Positions 1-3,221 of a stretch of DNA of 64,000 nt are shown here, piece after piece; positions within the stretch are counted from its first letter, which is position 1; every line of letters begins with the position of its first letter. The notes below the pieces were generated by a model. It was not told where the DNA came from, searched no databases, and saw only the letters and a program-made list of their open reading frames with translations. The position numbers and the translations under genes are program-made. The DNA lies in NCBI RefSeq assembly GCF_004342485.1, contig NZ_SMBU01000004.1:62001-126000 (forward strand), read 5' to 3'. This DNA is from Roseateles saccharophilus. GTDB taxonomy: Bacteria > Pseudomonadota > Gammaproteobacteria > Burkholderiales > Burkholderiaceae_C.

Positions 1-1609
1 CCAGGCGCTGGACGAGGCAGGCATTGCCCATCACGTCGTGGCCGACTGCATCGACATCGCCGACGAGCAGTGGCGCGCTGCCGCCGAGGGCGTGCTGCGC
101 GGCTCGCGCTGGGTCATCGTGCTCAAGCACCGCAGCGACGAGGCGCGCGCTTTCGGCATTGCGGCGAAGCAGAAGTATCGCCACTACGTCGTCTCCGACG
201 CGGCGCCGGTGCCGCAGGCACGGCCCGGCTCGCTGCTGGCCGCGCTGAAGGTCAGCGCGCCGTTGCCGACCTGGCTGGCCCGTCAGCTGGACGGTATCCG
301 CTGCGTCGCTAGCACCGAGGAAGGCTCGGGCACCGGCGGCGAATGGATCACGCCAGACGCCTACTACCGCGACGGCCGGGGCGGCCGCAGCGTGGCTATT
401 CCGGTGTCGGATCATCAGTTCGGCGCCAACGCCGTTGCGTCGCGTCGTGCGTCGCTGGAGGGTGAACTGGCCCGCATCGACAAGGAACTCACCGGTGTCG
501 CCAAGGCGCAGGCCGAGGTGGAGCGCCAGTTGAAGGATGCGCAGCGCGCCGCGCAGGGCCACAAGGCCGCCGCGGAGCTGTCCGAGCGGGCCGACGAATT
601 CGCCGAGGCGCGCGCGCGGCTGCCGGCGTTGAAGCAGGCACGAGCTGAGGCCAGCACGCGCATGACCAGCGTGGAGACCGAGCATGACCGGCTGCTGAAG
701 GCCTCCGGCGTGCACGAGCAGAACTACGAGCGTGCGCAGCGGGAACTGAAGGACGGCGAGGAACGCCAGGCCCGCACGGCACGTGAGCACGGCGAGCGGC
801 GCAAGGCCTTGCATGAGGCCGCGCGCGAATCCCGCGAGGCTGGCGCCAAATTCCCGCCGCGTTGGACCACCGCCATCGCGCTGCAAGCCTTGCGCAATGA
901 CTTCGAGAATGCCCGCCAGGCCCAGCTCCGCGCTGACCGCGTCGACCGCGAGCTCGCGGACGGCCTCTGGGAGACCGACACCACCGTCATCGACCGCCAC
1001 CTGCGCATGGAGATGCAGGTGCGCGAGGAGGAGACCCAGCTCGGCGACCGCCGCGCAAGTAACGCGCTGGCCGCCACGGCCGCGAGCAACGCCCGCGAGC
1101 GCTACATCGACGTGCTGCGCGCCACCGTGCGCCGCTACAAGAAGAACGTGGCCGAGCTGGGTGAACTGGCCGGTGTTGCTGCCGAGGCACAGTTGCCGCA
1201 TCTGGACAACGATGACACCGTGCTGGCCCAGGCCGGCCTGCACGTGAAGTTCAACTTCGACGGCAAGGGCGAGGTGGGCCTGAACGACGGCGAGGCCTCG
1301 GGCGGCCAGCAGGTGCTCAAGAGCCTGATCCTGCTCGTCGGCCTGATGAAGGACGACGAGACGCCCGGCGGCTTCGTCTTCATCGACGAGCCCTTCGCCC
1401 ACCTGGACGTGCGCAACATCCAGCTCGTCGGCCACTTCCTGCGCAGCACGCGGGCCCAGTACCTGCTCACCACGCCGATCACACACAACGTCGAGGTCTT
1501 CGAGCCCAGCGAGATCACGCTGATCACGAGCAAGAAGCCGCGCGGTGAACGCTGGGCGCCACCCATTGCCGTGCTGGCACGAAGGCCCGAGGTCAGCGAG
1601 TACGCATGA
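1..1609 (+). CDS. SMC/MukB-like ATPase, C-terminal part (Wadjet JetC-like), cut by left edge
   Basis: The frame is open to the left edge, so the N-terminal Walker A half lies outside the window; the GTG at 38 is probably internal. The visible part has a hinge-proximal globular segment, then a long charged coiled coil (roughly nt 430-1150), then the ATPase C-lobe: an SGGQQ signature near nt 1298, and Walker B plus D-loop (FVFIDEPFAHLD) near nt 1375-1410. This layout fits condensin-like or SbcC-like ATPases. The Toprim gene that follows with a 4-bp ATGA overlap makes Wadjet/MksB (plasmid-restricting condensin) the best reading. A stand-alone SbcC-type repair ATPase is the alternative. Confidence 0.7.
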   Translation, partial: QALDEAGIAHHVVADCIDIADEQWRAAAEGVLRGSRWVIVLKHRSDEARAFGIAAKQKYRHYVVSDAAPVPQARPGSLLAALKVSAPLPTWLARQLDGIRCVASTEEGSGTGGEWITPDAYYRDGRGGRSVAIPVSDHQFGANAVASRRASLEGELARIDKELTGVAKAQAEVERQLKDAQRAAQGHKAAAELSERADEFAEARARLPALKQARAEASTRMTSVETEHDRLLKASGVHEQNYERAQRELKDGEERQARTAREHGERRKALHEAARESREAGAKFPPRWTTAIALQALRNDFENARQAQLRADRVDRELADGLWETDTTVIDRHLRMEMQVREEETQLGDRRASNALAATAASNARERYIDVLRATVRRYKKNVAELGELAGVAAEAQLPHLDNDDTVLAQAGLHVKFNFDGKGEVGLNDGEASGGQQVLKSLILLVGLMKDDETPGGFVFIDEPFAHLDVRNIQLVGHFLRSTRAQYLLTTPITHNVEVFEPSEITLITSKKPRGERWAPPIAVLARRPEVSEYA

Positions 1610-2778
1610 GTGCCTGGCGCGAGCTGTCGGCCAACCGCTCGCGGCGGCATCTCGGCGCTGCCGAGCCGGTCTGGCCCGGCTCGCTTGCGCCGCTCGACGA
1701 GGACGAGAAGGCCTTGCTGCTCGACTGGCTGCGAGACAGCGCGGACACGCGCAAGTGGCAGGCCTTGCTGGAGACTGCGGGCACCGCTCGCATCGACCTG
1801 GCCGGCCGGCTGAGCGACAAGCTGTTGTCCAAGGGCATGGCCACCCGCAAGGAGACTTTCGAGCAAGGCCGATGGCGGCCGGCATTGCTGTGCTGGGTGG
1901 AGCTGGAGGCACTGCAGGCGGCGCTGGGCCTGCCCACGCGCAGCGCTCGTGATGCCCGGCGTGCGGCCTTGTCTGCCCGGCTTGAGGTCCTGATGGGCAA
2001 CGAACTCGTCGGCGAAGCCGCGCAAGCCCTGGCTGAGTCGGGCATGGCCACGGCCGCCGCCGAGGCGCGCGCGGCGCTGCTGGACGCGCTGCTCGGCTGG
2101 GTGGCCGATGGCGAGACCGGCCTGCGCCGCGACTTTGCGCTGCGGCTGGGCCACACCAAGGCCGTTGGTGATGGCGAATGGCAGTGGCTGGAGCGTCATT
2201 TCGACCTGCCTGCGCTGGGTATCGGCAGCTTTGCACCGCAGCTGACGCTTGCCGGCCAGCTCAGCCTGCACTGGGGTCAGGGGCTGCGGCTGGACATGGG
2301 CGTGGCGGCCTTCATCACGCTGCCCGTGGCGTCGATGGCGTCGCTTGAGAACGTCACGCCGCCCAGGCACTGGTGGCTGATCGAAGGTCGCGCCAGCTTC
2401 GAGAAGCAAGCTGCGCGTTGCGAGCCCGGCGTGGCGCTCGTCTGGATCGCCGGCAGGCCGACGCACGCCTGGGCCGCCGCGATGACCCGGTTGCTCCAAC
2501 TCGCACCGGCTCCGGCCGTCATCAGCGCCGACGCCGACCCCGCCGGTATCGAGATTGCGTTGTCGGCAGCCCAGCCCTGGAAAGCTGCTGGCTTGCCTTG
2601 GACCGCGACAGCGATGGAGCCCGAGAGATTGGACCGTCCGGGGCTGCAGCCATTAGGCCGCTACGACCTCGAAGTGCTTGCCCGCCTTGCCGAGCGTGCG
2701 CTGCCGCCCGAACTGGTCGCTTTGCGCGATGCGCTGAGCGAGCGCGGCGTGAAGGCCGAACAAGAGGGCTGGCTGTGA
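1606..2778 (+). CDS. Toprim-domain protein, JetD/MksG-like putative nuclease subunit
   Basis: 390 aa. The N-terminal 250 residues are helical and I do not recognise them. The C-terminal domain (about 250-350) has the Toprim acidic layout: Glu260 in WWLIEGRASF, then Asp309 and Asp311 in SADADPAG, like the DxDPxG loop of DUF2220/DUF2399 proteins. In Wadjet systems the Toprim subunit JetD cleaves DNA extruded by the JetABC motor. The start overlaps the stop of the ATPase gene (ATGA), as expected for stoichiometric subunits of one complex. Sequence divergence from canonical JetD looks large, so the subtype is uncertain; a topoisomerase VI-A/Spo11-like partner of an SMC protein is a related alternative. 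Confidence 0.62.
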   Translation: MSAWRELSANRSRRHLGAAEPVWPGSLAPLDEDEKALLLDWLRDSADTRKWQALLETAGTARIDLAGRLSDKLLSKGMATRKETFEQGRWRPALLCWVELEALQAALGLPTRSARDARRAALSARLEVLMGNELVGEAAQALAESGMATAAAEARAALLDALLGWVADGETGLRRDFALRLGHTKAVGDGEWQWLERHFDLPALGIGSFAPQLTLAGQLSLHWGQGLRLDMGVAAFITLPVASMASLENVTPPRHWWLIEGRASFEKQAARCEPGVALVWIAGRPTHAWAAAMTRLLQLAPAPAVISADADPAGIEIALSAAQPWKAAGLPWTATAMEPERLDRPGLQPLGRYDLEVLARLAERALPPELVALRDALSERGVKAEQEGWL

Positions 2779-3221
2779 AGGATGACTGGGACCACCCGTC
2801 CCCGTTCACGCTGTTGCTCTCGCCTGCGGCCGGGCACATCGACGGGTTGGGCCACACCAACAACGCGGTCTATGTGCAGTGGTGCGAGCAGGCGGGCTGG
2901 GCGCACTCGGAGGCGCTGGGCCTGTCGCTGGCCGACTACCGGCGCCTGGACCGCGCGATGGCCATCCGCGAGGGCCACTACGACTACCTGCTGCCGTCCT
3001 TCGAGGGCGAGGCCCTGGTGCTGGGCACCTGGCTGACGGCTAGCGATGGCCGGCTGACGATGGAGCGGCGCTTCCAACTGCGCCGCGCCAGCGACGGCAT
3101 CACGCTGGTGCGCGGGCGCTGGGTGTTGGTCTGCATTGCGATCAGCGACGGCAGACCGAAGCGCATGCCGGCTGAATTCCTGGGCATCTACGACGCGGCG
3201 GTGGTGCGGTCGGCCGGCTGA
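2775..3221 (+). CDS. Hotdog-fold acyl-CoA thioesterase (YbgC/FadM type)
   Basis: 148 aa. The GHIDGLGHTNNAVYVQWCEQ segment near the N terminus is the 4HBT/YbgC active-site signature (general form D.xGHvNNaxYxxxxE). These enzymes hydrolyse acyl-CoA thioesters in the cytoplasm. The GTG start (2775) overlaps the stop of the Toprim gene as GTGA, so it is probably translated by coupling from that operon. Substrate cannot be read from the sequence. Whether the link to the Wadjet-like genes is functional or only a shared transcript is unknown. Confidence 0.82.
   Translation: MKDDWDHPSPFTLLLSPAAGHIDGLGHTNNAVYVQWCEQAGWAHSEALGLSLADYRRLDRAMAIREGHYDYLLPSFEGEALVLGTWLTASDGRLTMERRFQLRRASDGITLVRGRWVLVCIAISDGRPKRMPAEFLGIYDAAVVRSAG

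What the first reader, a model, noticed from the sequence alone, without database searches (positions are those of the whole stretch)
1..2778. Divergent Wadjet-like module at the window edge
A condensin/SMC-type ATPase with SGGQQ and DEPFAHLD motifs is coupled (ATGA) to a Toprim protein with Glu260/Asp309/Asp311. This is the JetC-JetD pair of Wadjet anti-plasmid defence, but both proteins look divergent from canonical members, so it may be a new subtype. The jetA and jetB genes should lie left of position 1.
Basis: partly seen in the sequence, partly recalled or inferred. Interest (0 to 1): 0.78.

Follow-up and report, generated by a model that had tools for sequence, protein, structure and literature searches.

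The report
Wadjet-like condensin with dispensable nuclease
The window starts inside a four-gene bacterial DNA-looping machine with its own DNA-cutting partner, a distant relative of the Wadjet anti-plasmid system; in most of the related bacteria examined the cutter is missing while the looping part is kept intact, as if a defence machine had repeatedly turned into an ordinary chromosome organiser.

Summary
The window opens inside an SMC gene (938 aa) that overlaps a Toprim gene (390 aa; Glu260, Asp309, Asp311 invariant in 31 of 31 family sequences). The predicted partners lie just upstream: a 437-aa kleisin (MukF-like fold, moderate support) and a 235-aa JetB-like KITE. So it is a complete jetABCD-like operon, far from the known models. 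The surprise is downstream of the SMC. Of 77 testable named loci found by their SMC, all have the KITE but only 22 the nuclease; of 46 KITE-carrying genomes among 300 of the order, 9 have it. Six relatives hold the three-gene core at the window operon's own site with the nuclease cleanly absent. The nuclease tree largely follows the SMC tree, so repeated loss seems likelier than repeated gain. Nuclease-free cores keep their ATPase motifs and purifying selection. In one genus all six species carry a nuclease-free core and lack Smc and ScpA. Best reading: a new Wadjet variant whose core does chromosome work and whose nuclease is optional. Plasmid defence by the window's operon is inferred, not shown.

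The parts
1..1609 (+). 3' part of the SMC ATPase gene (JetC-like, 938 aa in all). The gene begins 1,207 bases left of window position 0 (L004:14793-17609). Left of it, also outside the window, lie the KITE gene (JetB-like, 235 aa, L004:14086-14793 = window -1914 to -1207) and the kleisin gene (JetA/MukF-like, 437 aa, L004:12776-14089 = window -3224 to -1911)
   Evidence: SMC; Walker A GPNGSGKT, signature SGGQQ, FIDEPFAHLD; hinge 374-594 matches the JetC hinge, hhalign E 3.9e-31. KITE; model (pLDDT 69) matches Wadjet JetB 8as8_C, Foldseek E 2.4e-6, and 8dk1_E, Z 13.3, 164 residues, rmsd 3.0; DUF4194 E 0.016, under cut-off. Kleisin; model (pLDDT 82) Foldseek best MukF, E 3.5e-3; VIA best MukF Z 12.8, 202 residues, rmsd 12.8, and Wadjet-II JetA Z 10.5, 128 residues, rmsd 2.8; no Pfam match over cut-off
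1606..2778 (+). Toprim nuclease gene (JetD-like), 390 aa, overlapping the SMC stop codon
   Evidence: PADLOC JetD1 E 1.3e-9; hhalign to canonical JetD P 97.8, E 1e-12 over 323 columns
2775..3221 (+). neighbouring thioesterase-like gene (label by recall), overlapping the stop of the Toprim gene; in six relatives it directly overlaps the SMC stop instead

Best explanation
A divergent JetABCD-type operon. The SMC, kleisin and KITE form an ATP-driven DNA loop-extruding complex; the Toprim protein is a metal-dependent nuclease that, as in Wadjet, would be switched on when the complex has reeled in a whole small circular DNA, and cut it (step inferred from Wadjet). The nuclease is a dispensable partner: the three-gene core has been kept without it in many lineages, with an intact ATPase, and there most likely works as an ordinary chromosome condensin (MksBEF/MukBEF-like), in one genus probably in place of Smc-ScpAB. 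Shown: operon, homologies, conserved catalytic residues, absence pattern, selection. Inferred: loop extrusion, cutting, anti-plasmid effect, condensin work, and loss rather than gain.
For: Four overlapping genes. Toprim protein homologous to JetD; a family member (L201) passes Pfam JetD_C and DUF2399 cut-offs. SMC hinge JetC-like (weaker to Smc, and to E. coli MukB). KITE fold JetB, kleisin fold MukF. Nuclease in 22 of 77 testable named loci and in 9 of 46 KITE-carrying genomes out of 300. Six loci at the window operon's own site lack it, the thioesterase start there overlapping the SMC stop. One decayed copy, L038. 18 changes of presence on the 106-row SMC tree; 13 of 17 well-supported nuclease-tree splits also in the SMC tree, 1 in conflict with a well-supported one. 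SMC dN/dS 0.037-0.180 in 9 nuclease-free pairs against 0.042-0.145 in 7 nuclease-carrying pairs. Six of six species of one genus without Smc over cut-off and without ScpA, with intact core.
Against: No experiment. Sequence profiles do not tie the kleisin to JetA or the KITE to JetB, and the kleisin fold match is only moderate. The best SMC tree puts the family next to Smc (support 96, quick search, long-branch warning), not JetC; the data do not reject a grouping with JetC (p 0.389). Parsimony does not give the direction of change: 18 gains or 24 losses. Kleisin dN/dS is higher in some nuclease-free pairs (up to 0.278, against at most 0.179 in nuclease-carrying pairs). A nuclease in trans is possible in some genomes: 5 of 15 nuclease-free KITE carriers seen in both searches have a canonical JetD_C match. 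MukBEF was not sought in the Smc-less genus, and 3 of its 6 species have a second KITE-like gene. A type III Wadjet in Cupriavidus necator showed no anti-plasmid effect when deleted (PMC12645576, passages).
Confidence: 0.7

Rival explanations
1. Plain Wadjet defence system: all four genes act only against plasmids, and nuclease-free loci are dead remnants on the way out.
For: Full operon with intact catalytic residues in the window; patchy presence, 9 of 20 genus genomes have the nuclease; kleisin somewhat relaxed in several nuclease-free pairs.
Against: Nuclease-free cores form clades of up to 20 rows, keep SGGQQ and FIDEPFAHLD in 74 of 74 and purifying selection on SMC and KITE; one genus lacks Smc but keeps the core.
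Confidence: 0.12
2. The complex is a chromosome condensin throughout, and the Toprim protein helps with chromosome topology or repair rather than defence, much as Topo IV works with MukB.
For: Same chromosomal site within the genus; 2 of 72,556 plasmid records match, each over about half of the SMC, while two canonical JetC queries found 20 and 23 records, 3 and 9 of them over 80% of the query (not corrected for how common each family is); no phage or viral-contig relative.
Against: The Toprim protein has no conserved tyrosine column, so re-ligation as by a topoisomerase is unlikely; it is often absent and evolves faster than its partners, as defence parts do; JetD/MksG homologues are nucleases (PMC10123090, passages).
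Confidence: 0.13
3. The nuclease was gained repeatedly by an ancestral nuclease-free condensin, rather than lost.
For: 18 gains would suffice, against 24 losses.
Against: Nuclease and SMC trees largely agree (13 of 17 supported splits shared, 1 conflict; 17 of 28 splits counting weak ones; distance correlation 0.86); the nuclease gene starts -13 to +17 bases from the SMC end in 21 of 21; a decayed copy exists.
Confidence: 0.2

Closest known systems
Wadjet type I (JetABCD; MksBEFG of Corynebacterium glutamicum)
   Same: Gene order kleisin-KITE-SMC-Toprim, JetC-type hinge, JetB-type KITE fold, JetD-type Toprim protein with acidic residues and no conserved tyrosine.
   Different: SMC 938 aa against 1123-1234 in nine canonical JetCs read here (a tenth, L036, may be cut); FIDEPFAHLD where ten canonical JetCs have DEAF; a clade of its own apart from the three JetC1 clades sampled; Toprim motif D-x-D-P-A-G in 9 of 9 against D-x-D-(T/E/F/Y)-x-G in 8 canonical JetDs; nuclease missing in most relatives examined.
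Wadjet type II (Neobacillus vireti JetABC structures 9qe0, 9qe1)
   Same: Kleisin model aligns with its JetA (Z 10.5, 128 residues, rmsd 2.8).
   Different: PADLOC JetD2 matches the Toprim protein only at E 0.0097; type II sequences were not compared further.
MksBEF (Pseudomonas) and MukBEF
   Same: Kleisin fold nearest MukF; nuclease-free members have the same three-gene make-up.
   Different: Match to E. coli MukB is confined to the signature and Walker B region, E 3.7e-6; Pseudomonas MksB was not compared. Here nuclease-carrying and nuclease-free forms alternate within one close family.
Smc-ScpAB
   Same: SMC ATPase with hinge; profile match E 8.2e-18; best tree joins the family to Smc, weakly founded.
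   Different: Hinge matches JetC more strongly; the host genome has a separate full-length Smc and ScpA.

Membership tests
Wadjet (JetABCD) | four-gene operon kleisin-KITE-SMC-Toprim | tested here: met
Wadjet (JetABCD) | JetC: SMC ATPase with JetC-type hinge | tested here: met
   hhalign E 3.9e-31 over the hinge
Wadjet (JetABCD) | JetC: full-length match to a JetC model, DEAF-type Walker B | tested here: not met
   best PADLOC JetC1 E 4.7e-23, best stretch 194-715 only, against E 0 over full length for canonical members; FIDEPFAHLD
Wadjet (JetABCD) | JetA: MukF-like kleisin | tested here: inconclusive
   fold: MukF ranks first but Foldseek E only 3.5e-3 and VIA Z 12.8 at rmsd 12.8, a level helical folds can reach by chance; sequence: no match to JetA profiles
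Wadjet (JetABCD) | JetB: KITE protein | tested here: met
   by fold; by sequence only DUF4194 E 0.016, under cut-off, and hhalign none
Wadjet (JetABCD) | JetD: Toprim protein, acidic residues, no catalytic tyrosine | tested here: met
Wadjet (JetABCD) | restricts plasmids, cuts circular DNA | not testable with these tools
   needs experiment
Wadjet (JetABCD) | kleisin-linked dimer of SMC dimers | not testable with these tools
   complexes could not be predicted here
MksBEF-type condensin (nuclease-free relatives) | SMC, kleisin and KITE without a nuclease, ATPase motifs intact | tested here: met
   55 of 77 testable named loci without nuclease; SGGQQ and FIDEPFAHLD in 74 of 74
MksBEF-type condensin (nuclease-free relatives) | acts on the chromosome | not testable with these tools
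   indirect only: genus without Smc and ScpA
SbcC/Rad50, RecN | no SMC hinge; no kleisin or KITE partner | tested here: not met
   hinge present, KITE partner present

The most novel reading that the evidence does not exclude
This family is the defence-to-housekeeping switch caught in the act: a Wadjet-derived SMC complex that sheds its plasmid-cutting nuclease again and again, each time leaving a working chromosome condensin, and that in one whole genus has taken over from Smc-ScpAB, as MukBEF apparently did once in an ancestor of the enterobacteria.
Probability: 0.45. Interest if true: 0.86.

Novelty: new variant of a known kind. Interest (0 to 1): 0.7.

Why it matters
How one kind of SMC complex can destroy plasmids while its near relatives organise chromosomes is an open question, and the review by Liu, Roisne-Hamelin and Gruber (PMC10586767; section on architecture and evolution read) only speculates that MukBEF and MksBEF have a history as defence systems. 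A family with many apparent nuclease losses, three of them between sister species whose SMCs are 92-97% identical, would make that step directly testable by deleting or swapping one gene. Its kleisin, KITE and Toprim proteins pass no Pfam or NCBIfam cut-off, so current annotation is likely to overlook it.

Tried and rejected
SbcC, Rad50 or RecN repair ATPase: rejected, because of the JetC-like hinge and the KITE partner. Topoisomerase or primase: the Toprim protein has no conserved tyrosine column and aligns with JetD over 323 columns. Alternative effectors in place of the nuclease: genes downstream of 18 nuclease-free loci are assorted; six share a protein that by recall of its start looks like an RNA methyltransferase, and two a glutamate 5-kinase. 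I found no common effector, but did not annotate every neighbour. Nuclease missed by a weak profile: a profile from 33 nuclease proteins found only one contig-cut gene (L046) and one decayed gene (L038) in 60 loci. Columns of the core that mark loss of the nuclease: only three, no clear interface.

Led nowhere: hhalign of kleisin and KITE against small canonical JetA and JetB alignments; profile searches of PDB sequences with Toprim, KITE and kleisin. Type III Wadjet was sought with one PADLOC model (PDLC00580), which gave only weak matches at 7.4e-7 or worse; type II gave one locus that I did not analyse. The SMC tree could not decide whether the family is nearer JetC or Smc. Whether the 11 genus genomes without a nuclease match hold a nuclease-free core was not searched. 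Literature: searches listed no paper whose title or shown abstract describes this family; Krishnan 2020 and Deep 2022 are not held, so an earlier mention there cannot be excluded.
Full report
What is there. The window is G000:C4:62001-126000. Fetching the left flank shows a run of four overlapping genes on the + strand: a 437-aa protein (window -3224 to -1911), a 235-aa protein (-1914 to -1207), a 938-aa SMC (-1207 to 1609) and a 390-aa Toprim protein (1606-2778).

What the parts are. The SMC has Walker A GPNGSGKT, signature SGGQQ and FIDEPFAHLD. Its hinge (374-594) matches the hinge of canonical JetC proteins (E 3.9e-31), more strongly than the SMC matches Smc (E 8.2e-18); E. coli MukB matches only around signature and Walker B (E 3.7e-6). 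PADLOC's JetC1 models match at best at E 4.7e-23, over arm and hinge, whereas canonical members score E 0 over their length. The Toprim protein aligns with canonical JetD over 323 columns (P 97.8, E 1e-12) and with PADLOC JetD1 at E 1.3e-9. It has no Pfam JetD and no NCBIfam match, but a family member, L201, passes Pfam's JetD_C and DUF2399 cut-offs. Glu260, Glu266, Asp309 and Asp311 are invariant in 31 of 31. Kleisin and KITE pass no Pfam or NCBIfam cut-off; PADLOC gives JetB1 E 0.078 for the KITE and nothing of Wadjet for the kleisin. The KITE model (pLDDT 69) matches Wadjet JetB first (Foldseek E 2.4e-6; Z 13.3 and 13.2, the next row at 8.9). The kleisin model (pLDDT 82) matches MukF first, but only at Foldseek E 3.5e-3 and Z 12.8 with rmsd 12.8, so its kleisin identity rests on moderate fold evidence plus gene order.

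A distinct branch. In a 39-row SMC tree the 22 family members form one clade, apart from three JetC1 clades, Smc and MukB. The best tree joins the family to Smc (support 96) with long-branch warnings; holding it with JetC is not rejected (AU p 0.389). The host genome also carries a second, more ordinary type I Wadjet operon on another contig (L148), and a full-length Smc and ScpA.

Where it occurs. Their titles are Burkholderiales (Roseateles, Pelomonas, Mitsuaria, Paucibacter, Aquabacterium, Herbaspirillum, Bordetella, Paraburkholderia and others) or unspecific, save one Methylotenera bin that falls among Pelomonas in the tree and is perhaps misassigned. Relatives beyond the best 80 were not seen. 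In the window's genus, 9 of 20 genomes have the nuclease; in the eight others the operon sits at the same site, with the shared flank upstream in 8 of 8 and downstream in 7 of 8, the eighth being cut by a contig end. The SMC is in 2 of 72,556 plasmid records, each over about half its length, against 20 and 23 records for two canonical JetC queries, of which 3 and 9 cover 80% or more (family abundance not corrected for). No match among 50,697 phage records, no relative in the viral contigs scanned.

The nuclease is usually absent. Among the 80 named loci, KITE was found in 80, kleisin in 78 and the SMC frame in 78, but the nuclease in 21; a second profile added L046, cut by the contig end. I left out L065, L073 and L100, which end too soon to judge. 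That leaves 22 with and 55 without, of 77; all 55 have at least 1,900 bases downstream. Searching 300 genomes of the order for KITE and then for the nuclease gave 46 KITE carriers, of which 9 have the nuclease anywhere in the genome at E 0.001 or better (only the 6 to 9 best candidates per genome are scored). Three genomes have a nuclease-profile match without KITE: G144 (2.9e-111; 87% complete) and two weak ones, G357 (2.0e-10) and G072 (2.8e-4). Of the 46, I fetched 20 loci, 18 of the 37 without and 2 of the 9 with a nuclease hit; all 20 have kleisin, KITE and SMC, and the 18 have no local nuclease. Six Pelomonas-like loci (L042-L045, L048, L072) hold the core at the window operon's own site, between the same dioxygenase and thioesterase genes, with the thioesterase start overlapping the SMC stop where the nuclease gene would be. 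In L038 the nuclease gene is decayed: pieces in two frames and a missing middle. A nuclease acting in trans is not excluded: of 15 nuclease-free KITE carriers that can be seen to have been in both searches, 5 have a canonical JetD_C match.

Loss rather than gain. On an 86-row SMC tree presence of the nuclease changes at least 14 times (13 forced by well-supported branches), and on 106 rows 18 times. Counts do not give direction: 24 losses or 18 gains. But the nuclease tree largely follows the SMC tree (13 of 17 supported splits shared, one in conflict inside the genus; 17 of 28 splits in all; distance correlation 0.86 on 29 rows, 0 of 2,000 permutations as high), and the nuclease gene starts within -13 to +17 bases of the SMC end in 21 of 21. 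I therefore favour an ancestral nuclease lost many times.

The nuclease-free core looks alive. SGGQQ and FIDEPFAHLD are kept in 74 of 74 nuclease-free SMCs; GPNGSGKT in 72 of 74, one of the others reading GQNGSGKT and one having an uncertain start. SMC dN/dS is 0.037-0.180 in nine nuclease-free pairs and 0.042-0.145 in seven nuclease-carrying pairs; KITE 0.034-0.207 and 0.077-0.272; kleisin 0.065-0.278 and 0.088-0.179, so the kleisin is somewhat looser in some nuclease-free pairs; the nuclease itself runs at 0.146-0.291. Of 46 KITE carriers, 42 have an Smc over cut-off; G431 has it in two pieces, G342 and G377 as fragments, and G075, a single-contig genome, has none. All six species of G075's genus lack Smc over cut-off and ScpA, and all six carry an intact family core with no nuclease hit in the 8.8-13 kb fetched. 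Whole-genome absence of the nuclease was tested for G075 only. Three of the six have a second, sub-threshold KITE-like gene beside a 455-aa gene, probably another Wadjet; that model misses the family's own KITE, so other KITEs could be missed too. MukBEF was not sought. The genus is unnamed in the data.

How it likely works. By homology with Wadjet (PMC10586767, outline, passages and section 7 read; PMC10123090, passages), the core extrudes DNA loops using ATP and the Toprim protein cuts circular DNA once extrusion is complete. In the window's genome the conserved residues are in place, so I expect plasmid restriction, with caution: a type III Wadjet in Cupriavidus necator had no such effect on deletion (PMC12645576, passages). 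In relatives without the nuclease the core should act as a condensin like MksBEF of Pseudomonas (PMC7485682, search listing with start of abstract only). Each functional step here is inference.

Novelty. Four-gene SMC-nuclease systems and nuclease-free MksBEF are both known. New, as far as seven literature searches and the libraries show, are this divergent family, the alternation of both forms within it, and a genus in which it coincides with absence of Smc-ScpA. Key papers that might mention it (Krishnan 2020, Deep 2022) could not be read.

Noticed in passing
L148:5698-12571 (G000:C56, same genome as the window): A second complete Wadjet type I operon (PADLOC JetC1 PDLC00507 E 0, JetD1 PDLC00527 E 1.6e-104) on a 21-kb contig of the same genome.
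   Followed up: partly
L193:2263-2946 and L195:2884-3540: Proteins of 227 and 218 aa with similar starts and no family match over cut-off sit between the kleisin and KITE genes in two genomes; possible extra subunit.
   Followed up: partly
L187:7555-8091 and L192:8087-8569: Acetyltransferase-like genes (label by recall of sequence) inside nuclease-free operons; L076 and L085 have 2.0-2.6 kb inserted between KITE and SMC genes.
   Followed up: no
window 1606-2778: Within the genus the nuclease gene is raised in dS as well as dN relative to its three neighbours (for example dS 0.59 against 0.35-0.39), suggesting exchange of nuclease alleles by recombination; the one conflict between nuclease and SMC trees is inside this genus.
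   Followed up: partly
L208, L209, L210: A second, sub-threshold KITE-like gene next to a 455-aa gene in three of six species of the Smc-less genus.
   Followed up: partly
L201:4676-5905: A nuclease of this family bridges to canonical JetD (JetD_C, DUF2399) and comes just under the cut-off of the TopoVIA/Spo11 Toprim model; useful link sequence.
   Followed up: no
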